Assembly (NCBI GenBank): GCA_026646885.1
Contig: JAPKHK010000008.1
Span: forward strand, 1-64,000
Length of the DNA: 64,000 nucleotides
Reading direction: 5' to 3'
Source of the DNA: Casimicrobiaceae bacterium
Lineage (GTDB): Bacteria > Pseudomonadota > Gammaproteobacteria > Burkholderiales > Casimicrobiaceae
Shown: positions 1 through 9,237 of the stretch, piece by piece
How positions within the stretch are numbered: the stretch's first letter is position 1
How the letters are laid out: each line of letters opens with the position of its first letter
The notes under the pieces: generated by a model
Seen by the model: only the letters and a program-made list of their open reading frames with translations
Told to the model about the DNA's origin: nothing
Database searches by the model: none
Program-made: the position numbers and the translations under genes

Positions 1-3000
1 GTGATGGTGGTGAGGCGGCCACGCGGGTCGTAGCTGTAGTTCACGGGGGCGATGCCGGGGATTTCTGAGCGGGTGGGTCGGCCTTGGACATCCACACTCA
101 GCGTGCTCACCCGGCCGGCGGCGCTGGTGTTCGTGAAGCGCCGCGCGGCGGCATCGAACACGCTGCTGAAGCTGCGGCCGTTGATGCTGCGCGTGGTGGT
201 TTCGTCGATGAGACTCAGGGGGTTGTTGGCGTCGGCGAGGTTGGCGGTGACGCTGGTTTGGGTGACGGAGGTGAGCCCGCTCGGGAGGGCAACGCGCGTT
301 TCGGTGTTGATGGGCGACTGCAAACCAAAGCGCGGGTCGGGGCCTTTGGTGACGGTGGTGACGGTGCCGTCGGCCGCGGTGCTGCGGGTGACACCGTCGA
401 TGCCGATTTCGGCGATGCTGACCGTGCCATCGGCCGCGGTGTTGGTGCGGCGTTCGTCGCCGGTGGGGAGGTTTTCGATGCGGTAGGTTCGGGCGCGGCC
501 TTCGGCGGAGCTCAAGGCGACGACCCGGCCATTCGATTCGGCGGTTTCCGCGAGACTCCAAAAGCCTCCGGCAGCATTTTCGTCTTTGATGAGGCGGCCG
601 GAAGCATCGTAGCTCATGGTCGAGGCTTGCCCGCGCGGACTCTCGAATCGTGTCAGCAACCCGCTGGCAGTGTAGGCCATGCGATGCGTTTCCCCCGCCG
701 GGTTGACGATTGAGGCCAGCCAGCCGTTCTGGTCCAGGCTCAAGGTCGTGCGCTGTCCGTCGGGCGCCACTATGGCTAGGGGGTTCCCGACAGCATCGCG
801 TTCGATGCGGGTCGAGTTGCCGTCGCCGTCTTGAATTCCGGTTAGCAGGCCGTTGGTGTAGCTGAAACTCTGTAGAACCGTGCCGATTCTGGCGTTCAGC
901 GTCTCCGTATGCCTCCCCATACCGTCGAATCGATAGAGCTCTGTTCCGTCCTTAGATGAAACGTCGAAGTCCCCCGCATTAAACCCGGGGAGCGCTGGTT
1001 CAACACGAACAAGGCGGTGGTGGGCGTCGTCGGCAACGTAAAGGACTCCTTCGGGCCCTACCGCGATGCAGGAGGGTTGAAGGCTCTGCTTCGCACCTGT
1101 TGCTCCCTCGACAAATGGTCCCCAGCCCTGCGAGCTATGCGCGAGCGCCGAGATCCTTCCGTCCGGTGTAACTCGCCTCAGCGTCTTTGCTGAGCTATCA
1201 CCAATGAAAAGGGTTCCGTCCCGGGCCACCGCGAGGCTGCTGGCCAGAAGCGTTGCATCTACCGCCGGGCCACCATCCCCGCTGCCCGGTTCCTGATAAC
1301 CCCACTTTCCGGCGACGGTTCGAATTCTTCCGAATGCATTGACTCTCCGAACGCGCTGCCAGTCCGCAATGTAGATGTCATCATCCGGACCTACACCGAT
1401 GGCGCTGGCGGCAAGTGACAAACCAGCGAGAGCTGCGGGCCCACCATCACCATTGTCGACGCCCGGCTCGCCGTAATCGCCCGTCGCCGGCTCCTCGCCA
1501 CTTCCGACGATAGTAACTATGTTGCCATCCGTCCCCACACGCCGAACGCGGCGATAGTCCAATATGAGGAGACTCCCATCGCGCGTGACCGCAAGTGAGC
1601 GCAAGTAGTCACCATTAAGGCTCGCCTCTGTAGCAGGACCTCCGTCACCGCTGAAACCCTGAAGTCCATTGCCGGCGATTGTTCGAATGCTGCCGTCGCC
1701 GCCGACGCGACGAACGCTGTGGGTCCCGCGATCCGCAATGTACAAGACGCCGTCACCCCCTACCGCGAGCGCTGTTGGCTTGAGATCCACCTGCGTGGCC
1801 GGAACCCCCTCCTCATTCTTCAAGGTCGCTTTGCGCGCCCGCTTGCCGCCTGATGCCGCTCCTACCGGCTCGGCGGAAGGCGCTTTCGCATCCTCGCCTC
1901 CTGAACTCCGGGGTTTCCCAGCAACCGTTCGGAGAATGCCATGCGGGTCTACCGAACGGACAGTGTCGGTGAAAGCATCGACGAAGTAGACGGTACCGTC
2001 CGCGGCAACAGCAATCGCCGATGGCGTTGCAGCCGCCTCGCGCGCCAATCTGCCGTCATCGGCAATCGAGGACAGATGATCCCCAGTGCCGGCATGTGTG
2101 CGAACAACGGCGCGATTCTTGGGATCCGAGATGCCCCGCGTGATGCCGTCACCATCGCGAAGGCTTCTAGCAACCGGGTCGAACACCTTGTGGGCGTCCA
2201 GGCTCCAACCACCGAACCCCAGGGGCCGCGAGTCAAGATGTGGAATTGGTCGAGTCTTTTCGAAAGACGCACCGGAATATTTTCCTAGAGCCGCATCGAC
2301 GGTCCATAGGTAGGGGATGATCGGCTCAACGCAGAACTCTCGAAACGATGATACGAAGCGGCTGAATATGGCTTTGTCCCCTCTTGTATCCGTTGGGACC
2401 GCCGAGCCCGCACTGACGGTGGGCCTTCGGTAGAAACGAGGCCAGCAGAAGAACGACGGATAGACGTATTCAACCAGAACGTCTAAGTATTGTCCGCCAT
2501 AGGGTTGGCGCCCGAACGCGTCAAGCCCGTCCCACTCGAAGTAGTAACGCTGGTTGGGTTGTGGTGGGAAGTGATGTACGAGTTGCTTTCCCGCGATTTC
2601 CAGGGTTAGAACGATCTGCTTAAGGCTAGCTGGAACTCGATCGCCACTGAGTTGGATACTGAGCCCCTTTCCACGCCCAGGAACTCTGTCGCTTCGGTAA
2701 TTCAGTGTATATGCCGTGCCGAGAACTGCGACACGTTCGCCCAATACCCTATTCTGAACAGTTACTATTGACCCCGGACAGTCGTCACAATCCTCCTTCG
2801 GATCTTCATCAGACGGGGGCGGTTCCTTCGGAGGTTCAGCGTCAGGGGGTACGTCATGAGGCCAATTGCAGTCGAAGGGCGAGAAATGATCTGTCTGAAA
2901 GCGCCAGAAGGAGTCACCGATGGCAAAATGCTCGGCGATTCGTGTTAGTTCGTTTGAATCTATTCCGACTTCTATAAGTAACTGCGGCGTTGCTGCCGAA

Positions 3001-6000
3001 CCAGAACCGTCAACATCGAGTTCTGCCTTGCCGTTCTGGACCCCGAGCAGTGCGATCACCCGGCCATCTGTAGTCGGTATCCAAGCGGGACGCTCCCGGT
3101 CATACCACCCGACCGGGACTGGCCCGCCAACCGGGAAGCCGATAAAGTTGTCCACATACACCGCCACCGGCTGGCTGAACTGCACGCTCTTGGCGCCCGC
3201 GTAGAAGGCTTCGTCGGCCGACAACTCGACGGCGTAGGTGTAGGCGCTGGCCGGCGGCAGTTCGCCAGGCATGGCTTGCGGGCCGTTGGGGCGGACGGTG
3301 TATTCGGTGGCGCGGAAATGCAGGGTGTCGAGCGGCACCTGGCTACCATCCGGGAGCACCATTGCCGCCGTGGTGCCGGCGGGGAAGAAGACGGTGGCCG
3401 AGCGCGTTCCCCGCTCGTCGCTCACCACACCGCCACGGGCCAGCTGCGGCACGTTTGAAGAAAGCGTAATGGGGGTGACGTTGTGGTCCAGCGGAATCAG
3501 CACCACCTCGGGGGCGATGGCATAGTCCTGCCATGGCACTTGCAATTGCCGCTGCGCGGGCAAATAGCCTGGCTTCTCGAAGTTCAGCGTCAGCGTGCCG
3601 CCGCCGTTGACCACCATGTCGAACATGCCATCGGCGCGCGAGCGCGTTTGCCCGAACTCCGGGTGCCCGAGAATGGTGACGGTGGCGCCGGAGAGCGGCT
3701 GATTGTCGCGGGAGAGGAGTTTGCCGCGCATCACCGCCGCGCGCTTGGCGTCGATGGTGTCGGGGTTTACCCCGGTTTGAACGGGGTTGGCGCCGGTGTA
3801 GAGAAACTTGGCGGTGATGCCCGGTACCGCGGGCAGGGTGGGGTCGATGGGCGGGGCGATGGTGGCCGGATCGGGCGGTAACGGGGGCTCCGTCACTCGC
3901 ACTTCGGTCGTTGCGGTGGCGGAAAGCTCGCCATCGGACACCGTGACCCGAAACACATACACGCCGGCCTGCACGAAATGGGCGGTGGTCCTCGCCTCAT
4001 TGCGACGGGCAATCCACGCCGCCGCGGGACCGGACTCCTGCACCCAGGCGTAGCTGAGCGGCCCGGGCAGGCCATCATCATTGGCCGTGGCCTGGAGCGT
4101 TGCCACGCTGGGCAAGACGATGTTTTGCGAGGGCGAAAGACTCAGCGTCGGGGCCTGATTGCCCGAAGTGCGATGCACCTGGCGCGTTTGCGTTTGCACC
4201 TGCCCATCATCCGCACGCGTGGCGGTGATAGTCAGTGTGTTGGGCCCCAGAGCGAGCGGCACTTCGACGCTGAAATCTTGACCGGTGATGCTCGCCGCAA
4301 TGCCGTTGACGCTGACACTCGCACTCGTGGCGTTGCTGAAGCTGCCGCGCACCATCACGGTGGCGGTGCTCACGGTGGCGTGGTCCTCCGGCGCGCTAAG
4401 GGTGAGGGCGAAGGCGGCATAGGTGAGGTTCACCACCGCCGTGGTGCTATTGGCAGCGGGGTCGGTAGCGACCAGGCTTTGGGTATTGAGCCCGGCGTTG
4501 AGCGTCAGCGGGAAGTTGAAATTCGGCCCGGCTTGCGGCGTGGCACCCCCCAGGGTGATGGTGGCGTTGGCCTCATCGACGCTGCCGGTGAGATTAGTGT
4601 TCGGGCGAAAGAGCACGCTGCCCGAAGGCGGGCTGATGGTGGTGAAGCGCGGCGCGATGGTGTCGATGGTAAAGCTCGCGCTCACGGTGTTGGAGGTAGC
4701 GCCGTCGCGGTCAGTGAGCCAGGCGGAGAATTGGTTCAGCCCCTCGGGCAGCGGGCTGACGGTTTGCCAGCGGGCTTGCCCGGCGCCGGCGCTGCCTTCG
4801 AAGGCTGCGCCGTTGATGAGGCCCAGCAGGCGGTAGCCGGGGTCGTAGTTCGCCGCCAGTTGGCAGGGCAGCCCTTGGCAGCGGGTCTGGTAGGTGAATT
4901 GCAAGGCCGGAGTGGCCTGGTTCAATAAGGCGCCGGCCGCGGGCTGGACCAGCACCAGGTTGGCCTGGGGCAGGCCGATGCCCAGGGCGTAGGGGTTGCT
5001 GCCGACATTGAGGGTTTTGTTGATGGCGCCGCTGGTGATGTCGAGTACATAGACTTTGCCGCTGGAGTGCCCGGCGGCATACACCCGGCTGCCTTCGGGG
5101 TGCACGCCCAGGCCCAGCGGATAGGCGCCGGCAGGCAGCAGCGTGGGGGTGAATGCGCCGCTGGCCAGATCCACCCGGGCGATGCTGCCGGCACCGCTGC
5201 CGGTGAAGTTGGCGACATAGAGCGCGGTTTCTTCGGGGTCGAGCGCAAGGCCCGCGGGCTGGGTGCCTACCGCCAGGGTTTGCAGCACTTGGCCGCTGGC
5301 CCCATCGAGCACATAAACGGCGTTGCTACCGCGGCCGCCGACGTACACCCGGCTGCCGTCGCGCTTGACCGCCACCGCGGCCGCTTGGCTGCCGGGCGGC
5401 AAGGGCCAGACGGTGTGGGCGAAGGTGGCGGCATCGATGACGCTGACGCCGGCGCCGGTAGCGACGAAGATGCGCGCGCCGTCGCGGCTCACCGCCACGC
5501 CTTGGGGCTCAGTGCCGACCGGCACTCGGGCGGTGAGGCTCAAGCTTACGGTGTCGATCACCAGCAGGTGATCGGCGGCGTCGGCGCTGACATAAACACG
5601 GGTGCCGTTGGGGGAAACGGCGACCCCCAAGGGCCGGTAGGGCAGCGCCAGGGTATCGAGGACGGTGAGCGTTTCGGCATCGTACACCGCCAGGCTGTTG
5701 GCGCCGCTCAGGGCGACATAAACCCGCCGGGCGTCGGGGCTCACCGCCAGGCCCTTGGGGACGGGGCCGGTGGGCACGGTGGCGCGCAGGGCATCGGCGC
5801 CGGTGTCGATGACGCTCAAGGTTTTGCCGCCCGCGTTGCTGAGGTAGGCCAGCGGTCCGGGCGCGGGCGGGGGTGCCGCGGCGGCGGCCACTTGCAGGTG
5901 TGCGGTGGCGGAGCTGGCGTTGGTGCCCAGGCGGTTGTAGGCGATGGCGGTGACACTGGCCGCACCGAGGCTCGGGAAGGAGTAGCTGGCGGTATAGGCG

Positions 6001-6524
6001 CCGTTGCTCGGGGCGCTGGCGCCGCCGATCCAGCTCCCGGCGGCGTTCTTGAAGACGACATTGTCGATGCCGATGCCATCGGGGTCGCTGACCACGGCGC
6101 TCAAGGGGGTGGGCACACCCTTGGCGACAGTGCTGCCGGCGCTCGGCGATATCACGCGGATGCGCGGCGTGTGCCGCACGGTGATCGCCGGGGCGTCGGC
6201 GCGGGCTTGCTGGCCCAAGCTGTCGGTGACCACCACGGCAAGCTCGTAACTGCCCGGCGGCACGTGCGTCCAGTGGTAGTTGGGCGCGCTGCTCGCGAAG
6301 CTCGCCAAGGGCACGGGTTCGCCGGCGCGGAAGAACTCGACCTTGGCCAGCGTGGCCGGGGCTGTGGCACGAACCGTGGCCCCCAGGCGTATGGTGGCGG
6401 GGTCGAGGCAAGGGGCGACGCAGTTGGCTTGGAAGGAAGTGACTTGCGGCGGGCCGGCCAATACCCCGGCCGCCGGAACAGCCACCAAAAACAGCAGCGC
6501 CAGCCGGGAGAGCCGGCACGACAC
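1..6524 (-). CDS. Giant secreted beta-propeller / NHL / RHS-repeat protein, 3' end beyond window
   Basis: One uninterrupted frame of about 2174 codons runs from a GTG at 6524 to the left edge; I checked the phase at several points. Residues 1-23 form a signal peptide with hydrophobic core LALLFLVAVPAAG. Then come Ig-like segments (~25-220), a seven-bladed-type YVTN propeller (~223-525, repeated 'SPDGTRVYV'-like motifs), more Ig/PKD-like segments (~530-900), a carboxypeptidase-regulatory-like domain (~929-990), several NHL repeats with the GFSGDGGPAT signature (~1481-1838), and RHS/YD repeats such as YDASGRL and DPRGRL from ~1846 to the edge. RHS proteins form a shell around a variable C-terminal domain, often a toxin; that end is not visible. 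The GTG start has no convincing Shine-Dalgarno; the well-placed one is at ATG 6750 in another phase (see leader ORF). It is probably surface-exposed or secreted. Confidence 0.85.
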   Translation of the reverse strand, partial: MSCRLSRLALLFLVAVPAAGVLAGPPQVTSFQANCVAPCLDPATIRLGATVRATAPATLAKVEFFRAGEPVPLASFASSAPNYHWTHVPPGSYELAVVVTDSLGQQARADAPAITVRHTPRIRVISPSAGSTVAKGVPTPLSAVVSDPDGIGIDNVVFKNAAGSWIGGASAPSNGAYTASYSFPSLGAASVTAIAYNRLGTNASSATAHLQVAAAAAPPPAPGPLAYLSNAGGKTLSVIDTGADALRATVPTGPVPKGLAVSPDARRVYVALSGANSLAVYDAETLTVLDTLALPYRPLGVAVSPNGTRVYVSADAADHLLVIDTVSLSLTARVPVGTEPQGVAVSRDGARIFVATGAGVSVIDAATFAHTVWPLPPGSQAAAVAVKRDGSRVYVGGRGSNAVYVLDGASGQVLQTLAVGTQPAGLALDPEETALYVANFTGSGAGSIARVDLASGAFTPTLLPAGAYPLGLGVHPEGSRVYAAGHSSGKVYVLDITSGAINKTLNVGSNPYALGIGLPQANLVLVQPAAGALLNQATPALQFTYQTRCQGLPCQLAANYDPGYRLLGLINGAAFEGSAGAGQARWQTVSPLPEGLNQFSAWLTDRDGATSNTVSASFTIDTIAPRFTTISPPSGSVLFRPNTNLTGSVDEANATITLGGATPQAGPNFNFPLTLNAGLNTQSLVATDPAANSTTAVVNLTYAAFALTLSAPEDHATVSTATVMVRGSFSNATSASVSVNGIAASITGQDFSVEVPLALGPNTLTITATRADDGQVQTQTRQVHRTSGNQAPTLSLSPSQNIVLPSVATLQATANDDGLPGPLSYAWVQESGPAAAWIARRNEARTTAHFVQAGVYVFRVTVSDGELSATATTEVRVTEPPLPPDPATIAPPIDPTLPAVPGITAKFLYTGANPVQTGVNPDTIDAKRAAVMRGKLLSRDNQPLSGATVTILGHPEFGQTRSRADGMFDMVVNGGGTLTLNFEKPGYLPAQRQLQVPWQDYAIAPEVVLIPLDHNVTPITLSSNVPQLARGGVVSDERGTRSATVFFPAGTTAAMVLPDGSQVPLDTLHFRATEYTVRPNGPQAMPGELPPASAYTYAVELSADEAFYAGAKSVQFSQPVAVYVDNFIGFPVGGPVPVGWYDRERPAWIPTTDGRVIALLGVQNGKAELDVDGSGSAATPQLLIEVGIDSNELTRIAEHFAIGDSFWRFQTDHFSPFDCNWPHDVPPDAEPPKEPPPSDEDPKEDCDDCPGSIVTVQNRVLGERVAVLGTAYTLNYRSDRVPGRGKGLSIQLSGDRVPASLKQIVLTLEIAGKQLVHHFPPQPNQRYYFEWDGLDAFGRQPYGGQYLDVLVEYVYPSFFCWPRFYRRPTVSAGSAVPTDTRGDKAIFSRFVSSFREFCVEPIIPYLWTVDAALGKYSGASFEKTRPIPHLDSRPLGFGGWSLDAHKVFDPVARSLRDGDGITRGISDPKNRAVVRTHAGTGDHLSSIADDGRLAREAAATPSAIAVAADGTVYFVDAFTDTVRSVDPHGILRTVAGKPRSSGGEDAKAPSAEPVGAASGGKRARKATLKNEEGVPATQVDLKPTALAVGGDGVLYIADRGTHSVRRVGGDGSIRTIAGNGLQGFSGDGGPATEASLNGDYLRSLAVTRDGSLLILDYRRVRRVGTDGNIVTIVGSGEEPATGDYGEPGVDNGDGGPAALAGLSLAASAIGVGPDDDIYIADWQRVRRVNAFGRIRTVAGKWGYQEPGSGDGGPAVDATLLASSLAVARDGTLFIGDSSAKTLRRVTPDGRISALAHSSQGWGPFVEGATGAKQSLQPSCIAVGPEGVLYVADDAHHRLVRVEPALPGFNAGDFDVSSKDGTELYRFDGMGRHTETLNARIGTVLQSFSYTNGLLTGIQDGDGNSTRIERDAVGNPLAIVAPDGQRTTLSLDQNGWLASIVNPAGETHRMAYTASGLLTRFESPRGQASTMSYDASGRLIKDENAAGGFWSLAETAESNGRVVALSSAEGRARTYRIENLPTGDERRTNTAADGTVSIAEIGIDGVTRSTAADGTVTTVTKGPDPRFGLQSPINTETRVALPSGLTSVTQTSVTANLADANNPLSLIDETTTRSINGRSFSSVFDAAARRFTNTSAAGRVSTLSVDVQGRPTRSEIPGIAPVNYSYDPRGRLTTI

Positions 6525-6552
6525 GGCGGTCGCTAAGCGCTGGAGGAGACGC

Positions 6553-6750
6553 TCAGCAACGCGCGACGCGGCGCTTGCGGCTTGCGGCTTGCGGCTTGCG
6601 GCTTGCGGCTTGCGGCTTGCGGCTTGCGGCTTGCGGCTTGCGGCTTGCGGCTTGCGGCTTGCGGCTTGCGGCTTGTGGCTTGTGGCTTGTGGCTTGGGCG
6701 TCGGAAAGGTCGAGACGGTTCCGCGATGTGTAAACCCGTGCCGTGTTCAT
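6553..6750 (-). other. Out-of-frame leader ORF carrying the heptanucleotide tract; likely phase-variable 5' end of the RHS gene
   Basis: An ATG at 6750 has a strong Shine-Dalgarno (GGGAGG at 6762-6757, 6-nt spacer). It opens 65 codons that encode a basic segment followed by repeats of AASRKPQ, then hits TGA at 6553-6555. The downstream RHS frame is one nucleotide out of phase. Removing one 7-bp unit, or adding two, joins this ATG to the RHS frame with no stop between. In the present sequence the only in-frame start for the RHS gene is GTG 6524, 29 nt after the leader stop, so translational coupling is a second possibility. A caveat is that the joined product would carry about 73 residues ahead of the signal peptide, which is long. 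Confidence 0.6.
6574..6692. repeat. Heptanucleotide tandem repeat, 17 units
   Basis: The plus strand shows 14 perfect copies of CTTGCGG (6574-6671) followed by three copies of CTTGTGG (6672-6692), 119 nt in all. Read on the minus strand, three units encode the seven residues AASRKPQ, and no phase of the tract contains a stop. Because 7 is not a multiple of 3, each unit gained or lost shifts the downstream frame. Tracts of this kind mutate by slipped-strand mispairing. The three variant units at the promoter-proximal end suggest point mutations accumulating at the edge of an otherwise homogenised array. Confidence 0.95.
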
Positions 6751-7237
6751 GCCAAACCTCCCTGCCGGTATTCGATTGACCGTTGCCGATTTGTTTCTGG
6801 TTGTCGCTGCTGTCGGAATCCTTGCCGCTCAGTAGCTGGTTGTCAGCCTATCATATGTCAACATTGTTTCGCAAGTAGGCATATTTGCACCACACTCGAA
6901 CTAGATCGACTTCCTTTCTTGAGCGCCTAGTCTCATCGGCCTCTTTTGCTCTCACCAGCGAGGCCCCTTGCTTTCCGTGCTAGCTAGTGTGCCGCGCCTC
7001 TGCGAGTGCGATTCCCGTCGATAGGGCACGCTCCGCGGCGGCTGCCCGATTTCCTCAACGACAATACGGCGCGTCGCGTTGCAATGTCACAATTGCAGGT
7101 CGAGCGACAAGGGTAAGGGCAGGGCAGTCGGCAGGCGACCGAGCTTCATGCACGATCGCCGGGCCAGGTCCACGGCCCGATACCGCACATGTCCTCAGGG
7201 GAAGCCATGGGGAACATGGCTTGTTGGCAAATCGCGA
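6751..7237. other. Intergenic region between the RHS locus and rlpA
   Basis: About 490 nt with no convincing coding sequence on either strand and visibly lower GC around 6830-6900. On the minus strand a TTGACA lies at 6861-6856, abutting a TATGAT at 6855-6850. They are too close together to be a -35/-10 pair, but they mark the only AT-rich stretch suitable for a promoter of the RHS locus. No tRNA or CRISPR repeat is seen. Confidence 0.4.
7202..7222 (-). terminator. Hairpin downstream of rlpA
   Basis: A perfect 8-bp inverted repeat (AAGCCATG / CATGGCTT) with a 5-nt loop begins about 16 nt past the rlpA stop. There is no T-tract, so intrinsic termination is uncertain; it could instead protect the 3' end of the operon transcript. 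Confidence 0.35.
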
Positions 7238-8143
7238 TCATTGCGCCTCGCGCAGAGTCGGCTCGAGGTCCATCGCCTCGCGCACCAAATCGCCCACACG
7301 GCGCGCTTCGCCTGCTTCCGTGTAGGGCCCCATCTGCACCCTGAACAAACCTTGTCCTTGCACGATGTGCGCATTCTCGCCCAGCCAAACCACGTGCGAC
7401 TGCACGTGTTTCAAAAAGGTTTCGGCATTGGCGAAGTTGCCGAAGGCGCCCAATTGCAGGTAGTAGCCGGCGCGCTCCTCGGCCACGGGAAGGGCCACTG
7501 GACGAGTCGCGGCAAGCGGCGGCGAAATTGGCGCTGGTGGCGGCAAGCGCGGTGTCGCTGCCGCCGCCGTAACCGGCTCGCTCTTTTCACCGGGAAGAAT
7601 CGCCTCCACCAGCACTTCGCCGCTACCTTTCTGGGCAATGCCCAGCTTGTGCGCCGCGGCGTACGAGAGGTCGATGACGCGCCCGGCGTGAAACGGTCCC
7701 CGATCGTTCACCCGCAGCACCACGCTGCGGCCATTGGCGGGATTGGTCACGCGCGCGTAGCTGGGCAGGGGCAGCGTGGGGTGGGCGGCGCTCATGGCAT
7801 ACATGTCGTAGGTTTCGCCAATGGCGGTCTTTTGGCCGTGAAATTGCCGCCCGTACCACGAAGCGATGCCGCGTTCTTGGTAGGGCCGGTGCGCCGTCGC
7901 CGGCACGTACTCGCGTCCGAACACGGTGTAGGGCCGGTTGGCGAAACGATGCAAGGGCTCGTAGCGCGGCTGGAGGTCGGGTATGGCGTCCAGGTTTGCC
8001 GGCGGGTTTGAACCCGGGCCGTCGTTTTGATAATAGGCACCGCGATGGGCTGCTCCGGGTGCCGCGGCACTGGCCGACTCGCGCGGGCTCGGCCCGGCAC
8101 AGGCGGTCAACAACAGGGCATACACGGCAAGCCAGCGTACCAT
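7238..8143 (-). CDS. rlpA: RlpA septal-ring lytic transglycosylase lipoprotein
   Basis: 301 residues. The start ATG shares its A with the rodA stop (TGATG). The N-terminus is a lipoprotein signal with lipobox LLTAC (Cys15), so it is probably anchored in the outer membrane. A double-psi beta-barrel domain (roughly residues 95-180) contains GIASWYG, AAHPTLPLPS, TNPANGRSVVLRVNDRGPF and RVIDLS motifs typical of RlpA. A C-terminal SPOR domain (about 225-295) binds denuded glycan at the septum. In characterised species RlpA cleaves naked glycan strands. It is the last gene of the mreBCD-mrdA-rodA operon, the usual position in proteobacteria. Confidence 0.95.
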   Translation of the reverse strand: MVRWLAVYALLLTACAGPSPRESASAAAPGAAHRGAYYQNDGPGSNPPANLDAIPDLQPRYEPLHRFANRPYTVFGREYVPATAHRPYQERGIASWYGRQFHGQKTAIGETYDMYAMSAAHPTLPLPSYARVTNPANGRSVVLRVNDRGPFHAGRVIDLSYAAAHKLGIAQKGSGEVLVEAILPGEKSEPVTAAAATPRLPPPAPISPPLAATRPVALPVAEERAGYYLQLGAFGNFANAETFLKHVQSHVVWLGENAHIVQGQGLFRVQMGPYTEAGEARRVGDLVREAMDLEPTLREAQ

Positions 8144-9237
8144 CAAGATTTCACCAGCTTGCGATGGGTCTGCACGCTCATGAGGATGCCGATGCCAAGA
8201 AACAGCGTCACCAGCGCCGTACCTCCATAGCTCACCAGCGGCAGGGGTACCCCCACCACGGGCAGAATGCCGCTGACCATGCCCATGTTCACGAAGGCGT
8301 AGGTGAAGAACATCAGGCTGATCGAGCCGGCAAGCAGCCGCCCAAACAGGGTCGAGGCGTTGGCGGTGATCAGCAGACCGCGGCCAATGAGCAACGTGTA
8401 GAGCGCGAGCAGCACGATATTGCCCAAGAGACCGAACTCTTCGCCGTAGACCGCAAAAATGAAATCGGTGTGGCGCTCGGGAAGAAAGTCGAGATGCGCC
8501 TGCGTGCCTTGTAGCCAGCCTTTGCCCAGCACGCCGCCGGAGCCGATGGCAATGGTGGACTGGATGATGTGGTAGCCCGCCCCCAAAGCGTCGCGAGTGG
8601 GGTCGAACAGCGTGAGGATGCGCTCGCGTTGGTAGCCATGGAGCAGCGGCCATAACAGGGGCAAAGTCGCGCAAGCGGCAGTTCCAAGCACGGCGATGAC
8701 TTTCCAGGAAAGACCCGCCAGGAACAACACATATGCCCCGGCCGCCGCAATCAGCAACGCGGTGCCCAGATCGGGCTGGCGAACAATCAGGAACATGGGG
8801 AGTCCGATCAGCAGCGCCGCTACCGCGAAATCGCGCAACCTGAGACTTGCTTCGCGCTTTTCAAAATACCAGGCAAGCATCAGCGGCAGGGCAATCTTCA
8901 TCAGCTCCGAGGGCTGAATGCGCGTGACCCCGATGTGTAGCCAGCGTCGCGCGCCGTTGACGACATCACCAAACAGCGCCACCGCGATCAGCAAGAAGAT
9001 GCCAGCGAGATACAATGGCACGGCGAAGCGCTTGAGGTTCTGCGGTGAGACGTTTGCCACCATCCACATCGCCGCCAAGGCGACGCCCAGGTTCATGAGT
9101 TGCGCCAAGAAGCGCGCGAAACTCTGGCTCGACGCGCTGTAAAGGACGCCCAAACCCAGACCGGCAATGCAGAGCGCCACACCAAGCAAGAAACCATCGA
9201 TGTGCCGAGAGGCCAGCAGCCAGAGGCGTTCAATCAT
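8143..9237 (-). CDS. rodA: RodA, SEDS peptidoglycan glycosyltransferase of the elongasome
   Basis: 364 residues with about ten hydrophobic transmembrane segments and SEDS motifs, including the C-terminal PLPLVSYGGT and the loop with GSGGVLGKGWLQGTQ and FLPERHTDFIFAVYGEE. It polymerises lipid II in the inner membrane together with PBP2. I chose ATG 9237 because a GAGGAGG Shine-Dalgarno lies 9 nt upstream; a TTG at 9255 would add six residues. The start overlaps the mrdA stop by 8 nt, which implies translational coupling of the two partner enzymes. Confidence 0.97.
   Translation of the reverse strand: MIERLWLLASRHIDGFLLGVALCIAGLGLGVLYSASSQSFARFLAQLMNLGVALAAMWMVANVSPQNLKRFAVPLYLAGIFLLIAVALFGDVVNGARRWLHIGVTRIQPSELMKIALPLMLAWYFEKREASLRLRDFAVAALLIGLPMFLIVRQPDLGTALLIAAAGAYVLFLAGLSWKVIAVLGTAACATLPLLWPLLHGYQRERILTLFDPTRDALGAGYHIIQSTIAIGSGGVLGKGWLQGTQAHLDFLPERHTDFIFAVYGEEFGLLGNIVLLALYTLLIGRGLLITANASTLFGRLLAGSISLMFFTYAFVNMGMVSGILPVVGVPLPLVSYGGTALVTLFLGIGILMSVQTHRKLVKS

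What the first reader, a model, noticed from the sequence alone, without database searches (positions are those of the whole stretch)
6553..6762. Heptanucleotide tract that would switch a giant RHS protein on and off by frameshift
Seen directly: 17 seven-base units lie between an ATG with a strong Shine-Dalgarno and the RHS frame. In the sequence as given, that ATG is out of phase by one base. Loss of one unit or gain of two fuses it to the RHS frame with no stop. This is the layout of a contingency locus. The three variant units at one end show the array is old enough to carry point mutations. The alternative is initiation at GTG 6524 with the leader used for coupling.
Basis: partly seen in the sequence, partly recalled or inferred. 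Interest (0 to 1): 0.78.

Follow-up and report, generated by a model that had tools for sequence, protein, structure and literature searches.

The report
Heptamer frameshift switch before teneurin-like RHS
A 7-base unit repeated about 17 times lies between a strong start site and a giant surface-type RHS (teneurin-like) gene, so gain or loss of units would fuse or unfuse the two; the same repeat sits at the 5' ends of DNA-methylase and secreted-protein genes in other bacteria, which supports a slippage switch, although variation itself was not observed here.

Summary
The tract is real: (CGCAAGC)17.7 on the minus strand, window 6573-6696, the longest short-period array in 1.53 Mb of this genome that was read. 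ATG 6750 has a very strong Shine-Dalgarno (-11.7 kcal/mol) and an open frame through the tract, but meets a stop at 6553. Loss of one unit, or gain of two, fuses it to the RHS frame. The rival start, GTG 6524, has no Shine-Dalgarno (-0.1 kcal/mol) but begins a textbook signal peptide. The gene is a bacterial teneurin-like RHS protein, absent from this position in the one same-genus genome, and runs off the contig.

New evidence: the same heptamer, in the same coding sense, sits just after the start codon of EcoRI-family methyltransferases (three genomes) and of a HsdR_N/N6-methylase, and in the signal-peptide leader of three other secreted proteins: classic contingency-locus targets. Array-free methylase homologues start where the array lies. 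The closest proven case is neuO of E. coli K1.

Not shown: unit-number variation, or which start is used. The heptamer also occurs in untranslated and non-coding places, so the repeat alone does not prove a switch. Verdict: probable neuO-like translational contingency locus, a new member of a known kind.

The parts
6573..6696 (-). Heptanucleotide array, 17.7 units, coding sense (CAAGCCA)3(CAAGCCG)14 CAAGC; reads RKPQAAS in every frame, no stops
6676..6696 (-). Three identical variant units (CAAGCCA) at the ATG-proximal end
6757..6762 (-). Shine-Dalgarno GGGAGG, 6 nt before ATG 6750; duplex energy -11.7 kcal/mol
6553..6750 (-). Leader ORF as assembled: ATG 6750, 65 codons through the array, TGA 6555-6553 (out of phase with RHS by one base)
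6533..6535 (-). Stop (TAG) that ends the other out-of-phase reading, 8 nt before GTG 6524
6522..6524 (-). GTG, alternative start of the RHS frame; no Shine-Dalgarno (-0.1 kcal/mol)
6453..6524 (-). Signal-peptide-like stretch VSCRLSRLALLFLVAVPAAGVLAG (judged by eye)
   Evidence: sequence read directly
3..6524 (-). RHS / bacterial teneurin-like protein, incomplete: runs off the contig end. Big_7, YncE-like propeller, glucodextranase-B, PKD, teneurin TTR, teneurin NHL, start of YD shell
7238..8674 (-). Upstream RlpA-like gene (DPBB + SPOR); conserved in the same-genus genome G001, where no RHS gene follows

Best explanation
The tract is a translational contingency (phase-variation) element of the neuO type. 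Translation starts at ATG 6750 and passes through the repeat. Slipped-strand mispairing during replication changes the unit number. One phase in three (1.7, 4.7 ... 16.7, 19.7 units) fuses the leader to the RHS frame, so that the teneurin-like surface protein is made with a long, basic, repetitive n-region before its signal peptide. In the other two phases the ribosome stops early (at 65 or 74 codons for the unit numbers next to the present one) and the protein is off or strongly reduced. Shown: the tract, the start signals, the frame arithmetic, the open fusion frames, and the same heptamer in the same position and sense in other contingency-type genes. Inferred: that slippage happens here at a useful rate, that ATG 6750 is the start used, and that the long n-region still allows export.
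For: Frame logic and open fusion frames. Start strength: ATG 6750 -11.7 v GTG 6524 -0.1 kcal/mol; chance of such an ATG open to the array 0.18%. Only such array in 1.53 Mb of the genome read. Same heptamer and sense directly after the ATG of EcoRI-family methylases L087, L089, L150 and of HsdR_N/N6-methylase L142, with no usable start after the array; array-free homologues start where the array lies. Same heptamer between ATG and signal peptide in L140, L113 and L120. Three identical variant units imply past unit duplication. Proven precedent: neuO heptanucleotide tract (PMC13001214).
Against: No unit-number variation was observed at this locus. The same heptamer also lies in 5' untranslated or non-coding places, so its presence alone does not prove a frame switch. 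The fused form would have an n-region of about 80 residues, long for a Sec signal peptide. GTG 6524 begins a normal signal peptide. As assembled, this locus and all four methylases are out of phase.
Confidence: 0.62

Rival explanations
1. RHS is translated from GTG 6524 in all phases. The array lies in a translated leader or 5' untranslated region and at most tunes expression, by termination-reinitiation near the GTG or by mRNA length or structure. It is then not an on/off frameshift switch.
For: GTG 6524 gives a normal-length signal peptide. Out-of-phase stops lie 8 and 28 nt before it. In several other genomes the same heptamer lies upstream of a gene with its own start, e.g. L122, L144, L149.
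Against: No Shine-Dalgarno at GTG 6524, and a very strong one at ATG 6750 whose frame stays open to the array. The methylase and other secreted-protein cases have no usable start after the array.
Confidence: 0.22
2. A neutral microsatellite: this heptamer arises and expands in many genomes through polymerase slippage, and here happened to expand in a leader without being kept for switching.
For: Arrays of the same heptamer occur in many phyla, many between genes. Heptamers are known to be over-represented among bacterial simple repeats (PMC4692102). The heptamer was not clearly commoner than its letter-reversed control in the order or phylum.
Against: Placement exactly between a strong start and a surface-protein gene, repeated in methylases and secreted proteins, all in one sense. 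No other heptamer array in the 1.53 Mb read.
Confidence: 0.13
3. The unit number, and so the phase, is an assembly error; the true tract is fixed in the in-phase length.
For: Draft assembly of 83 contigs with the gene cut at a contig end; 124 bp is close to short-read length. A related contig has an N gap inside its array (L113), and several arrays lie at contig ends.
Against: Clean flanks and resolved variant units. Arrays also occur in complete genomes (L090, L118). An error in the count would not remove the tract itself.
Confidence: 0.03

Closest known systems
neuO (capsule O-acetyltransferase) of E. coli K1, (AAGACTC)n (PMC13001214)
   Same: Heptanucleotide tract in the 5' coding region; unit number decides the frame; one phase in three is full length; most genomes are out of phase (65.6%).
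   Different: Different unit and gene; neuO is prophage-borne and its variation is measured. Here the target is a secreted teneurin-like RHS protein, the tract precedes a signal peptide, and variation is not shown.
hmw1A/hmw2A heptanucleotide tracts of Haemophilus influenzae (PMC2651432, PMC11475388)
   Same: Heptanucleotide tract of similar length (13-38 units) that varies the expression of a large surface protein.
   Different: Tract in the promoter, graded effect; not a reading-frame switch.
Phase-variable methyltransferases (phasevarions) (PMC11475388)
   Same: Tracts at the 5' end of methyltransferase genes; matches the L087, L089, L150 and L142 cases found here with the same heptamer.
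   Different: The RHS gene is not a methyltransferase; no methylome data.
Bacterial teneurin-like proteins (PMC13018210)
   Same: Domain order with TTR, NHL and YD shell, signal peptide, accessory distribution.
   Different: A term search of that paper found no mention of phase variation; C-terminal toxin and immunity gene not seen here because the gene is cut.
Heptameric repeats of Xanthomonas and Nostoc, GGGAATC / GGGGA(T/C)T (PMC4692102)
   Same: Heptameric simple repeats with length variation between relatives.
   Different: Other units, intergenic, G-quadruplex-forming, many copies per genome; here one array in a leader ORF.

Membership tests
SSR translational contingency locus (neuO type) | Long uninterrupted tandem tract whose unit length is not a multiple of 3 | tested here: met
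   7-bp unit, 17.7 copies, 14.7 of them perfect
SSR translational contingency locus (neuO type) | Tract between a functional start and the gene body, so that unit changes join or part the frames | tested here: met
   Frame arithmetic and open fusions; strong start at ATG 6750. Use of that start in the cell not tested.
SSR translational contingency locus (neuO type) | Unit number varies between cells or strains | not testable with these tools
   One assembly, no reads; no orthologous leader found in 64 family genomes
SSR translational contingency locus (neuO type) | Phase-dependent expression | not testable with these tools
   Needs reporter or proteomics
Bacterial teneurin-like protein | Teneurin NHL and TTR domains over the curated cut-off | tested here: met
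   TEN_NHL 93.5 bits (cut-off 27.1), TTR_TEN1-4 89.4 (27.0)
Bacterial teneurin-like protein | FN-plug and YD shell | tested here: inconclusive
   FN-plug 22.1 bits (cut-off 27.8); YD shell 49.4 on the protein (cut-off 50) and 53.9 on the genome, only profile 9-237 of 909 because the gene is cut
Bacterial teneurin-like protein | C-terminal polymorphic toxin and immunity gene | not tested
   Gene cut at the contig end; a YD-shell C-terminal part lies on contig C67, not joined or examined

The most novel reading that the evidence does not exclude
One heptamer, CGCAAGC, is a recurrent contingency repeat used by unrelated bacterial phyla. It has no stop in any frame and reads as the mild linker RKPQAAS in this sense, so it is tolerated between the start codon and the body of methylases and inside signal-peptide leaders. 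It makes methylomes and giant surface proteins, including a teneurin-like RHS, phase-variable in bacteria not known as host-adapted pathogens. At the RHS locus the switch may even choose between two N-termini (a fused long leader, or a GTG-started normal signal peptide) rather than plain on/off.
Probability: 0.35. Interest if true: 0.75.

Novelty: new member of a known kind. Interest (0 to 1): 0.6.

Why it matters
Phase variation is mostly studied in host-adapted pathogens. A frameshift switch on a teneurin-like polymorphic surface protein of an apparently environmental bacterium would show bet-hedging in contact or competition proteins. The recurrence of one heptamer at methylase and surface-protein starts in unrelated bacteria gives a simple sequence handle for finding more such switches, testable with existing long-read data.

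Tried and rejected
Looked for an orthologue of the leader or N-terminus in relatives: none close enough. RHS homologues in the family are 44-49% identical, over the part after about residue 790 only, and have other N-termini. Tested whether the genome is generally rich in heptamer arrays: no, in the 1.53 Mb read. Tested whether this heptamer is common in the order or phylum against its letter-reversed control: 3 v 2 of 399 and 2 v 0 of 398, no strong enrichment at that sample size. Tried to find close relatives of the L113 gene with other unit numbers: only distant ones. A literature search for the unit by its letters (12 of the 14 rotations of both strands) found no paper on it as a repeat; one P. 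aeruginosa study reports a GCTTGCG 1 to 2 duplication in wbpM. A sigma-70-like promoter scan gave one weak site, far upstream. Looked at three further EcoRI-family methylase loci from the phylum for arrays at the start: I printed the wrong end of the gene and did not repeat it, so they say nothing either way.

Full report
What is there. The minus strand of window 6573-6696 holds 17.7 copies of a heptamer: three CAAGCCA units, fourteen CAAGCCG units and a partial one. It is by far the strongest tandem array of the window. In 1.53 Mb of the same draft genome that I read, it is the longest exact array of any period from 1 to 15, and the only period-7 array of three or more units. Three adjacent identical variant units are most simply explained by duplication of one mutated unit, i.e. 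past unit gain (inference).

Start signals and frames. ATG 6750 carries GGGAGG at a good distance; the anti-Shine-Dalgarno duplex is -11.7 kcal/mol, whereas GTG 6524 has -0.1. In sequences simulated from the local leader composition, an ATG with at least this energy and an open frame to the array occurs in 0.18% of cases. As assembled, ATG 6750 reads 65 codons and stops at TGA 6555-6553. Removing one unit or adding two opens an uninterrupted frame into the RHS protein; every third unit number does the same. The repeat has no stop in any frame and reads RKPQAAS. The two out-of-phase readings stop 28 nt and 8 nt before GTG 6524, so reinitiation there cannot be excluded.

The gene. The RHS frame runs from the tract to the contig end. 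It carries a signal-peptide-like start, Ig-like and beta-propeller regions, a teneurin TTR domain, a teneurin NHL domain and the start of a YD shell. Bacterial teneurin-like proteins have been described as accessory polymorphic toxins (PMC13018210); a term search of that paper found no mention of phase variation. The upstream rlpA-like gene and its neighbours are conserved in the one same-genus genome (76% DNA identity), but no RHS gene follows there, so the gene looks accessory. A C-terminal YD-shell piece lies on another contig, C67; the two were not joined.

The organism. A relative in the same order, G412, has an array at contig coordinates 1279-1313, as does PFJY01000203.1, a Hydrogenophilales MAG, and their sequence looks the same. 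So the window comes from the order that contains it, most likely Burkholderiales in GTDB (inference; the genome's name was not given).

The same heptamer elsewhere. Many lie between genes or upstream of genes with their own start. A clear subset has the window's layout, in each case with the coding strand reading CGCAAGC. Three EcoRI-family adenine methylases (L087, L089, L150; Pfam PF13651, E < 1e-120) and one HsdR_N/N6-methylase (L142) have an ATG 7-9 nt before the array, the conserved domain beginning 9 to 26 residues after it, and no start codon for 27 or more codons after it. In three array-free methylase homologues on plasmids, the annotated start falls where the array lies. Only 3 of 398 genomes of the phylum sample carry this methylase family at all, so three among 80 array loci is far above what I would expect by chance (inference). 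All four are out of phase as assembled; for neuO, 65.6% of genomes are out of phase (PMC13001214).

Secreted proteins with the same layout. L140 (Methylococcales, LamG domain, in frame), L113/G412 (Hydrogenophilales, outer-membrane-type protein, in frame but with an N gap inside the array) and L120 (Cytophagales lipoprotein, out of frame) each have ATG - array - signal peptide, with no usable start after the array. The ATGs there lack a clear Shine-Dalgarno, so those starts are less certain than the one in the window. The window RHS is the fourth of this group. R-M enzymes and surface proteins are the classic targets of contingency loci (established knowledge; PMC11475388).

How it most likely works. 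Slipped-strand mispairing changes the unit number; one phase in three connects the strong start at ATG 6750 to the RHS body, the other two end in early stops. This is the neuO mechanism (heptamer in the 5' coding region, units divisible by three for full length). The weak points are the lack of any observed variation, the alternative GTG, and an n-region of about 80 residues in the fused form.

Limits. One assembly; no reads; no close relatives with the gene; signal peptides judged by eye; gene starts in other genomes inferred from open frames and domain starts. The array set was fetched by one exact pattern and capped, so frequencies in it are not population estimates. The heptamer's abundance against other heptamers was tested only with its letter-reversed control in about 800 genomes and was not clearly raised. 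The 0.18% depends on a first-order Markov null built from 541 bases of local sequence that include the real start.

Noticed in passing
L092, L122, L143, L145, also L094, L105, L117, L138, L139: In termite-gut-type betaproteobacterial MAGs the same heptamer array follows directly on a sigma70-like promoter (TTGACA...ATAAT), and in several is followed by a strong hairpin; this could be a small RNA made of heptamer repeats. Unexplained.
   Followed up: partly
L087, L089, L142, L150, just upstream of the array: The four methylase genes share a TTGACa-N15-(c/a)ATAATG element in which the -10-like hexamer overlaps the start codon, although L142 encodes a different protein family.
   Followed up: partly
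L079, L100 (both in Spirochaetaceae bin Cf509_bin66), also L119: Spirochaete MAGs carry several copies of the array with related flanks, as if it were part of a dispersed element.
   Followed up: no
L303:7493 (G000:C12, about 327.5 kb): A 12-bp array (GCTAGAGTCACG)7.3 in the same genome, the second longest short-period array found.
   Followed up: no
G000:C67:286542-287477: A teneurin YD-shell C-terminal part (profile 570-893) whose fetched locus is cut short by a contig end; it may be the other end of the RHS gene cut at window base 1. Not joined.
   Followed up: no
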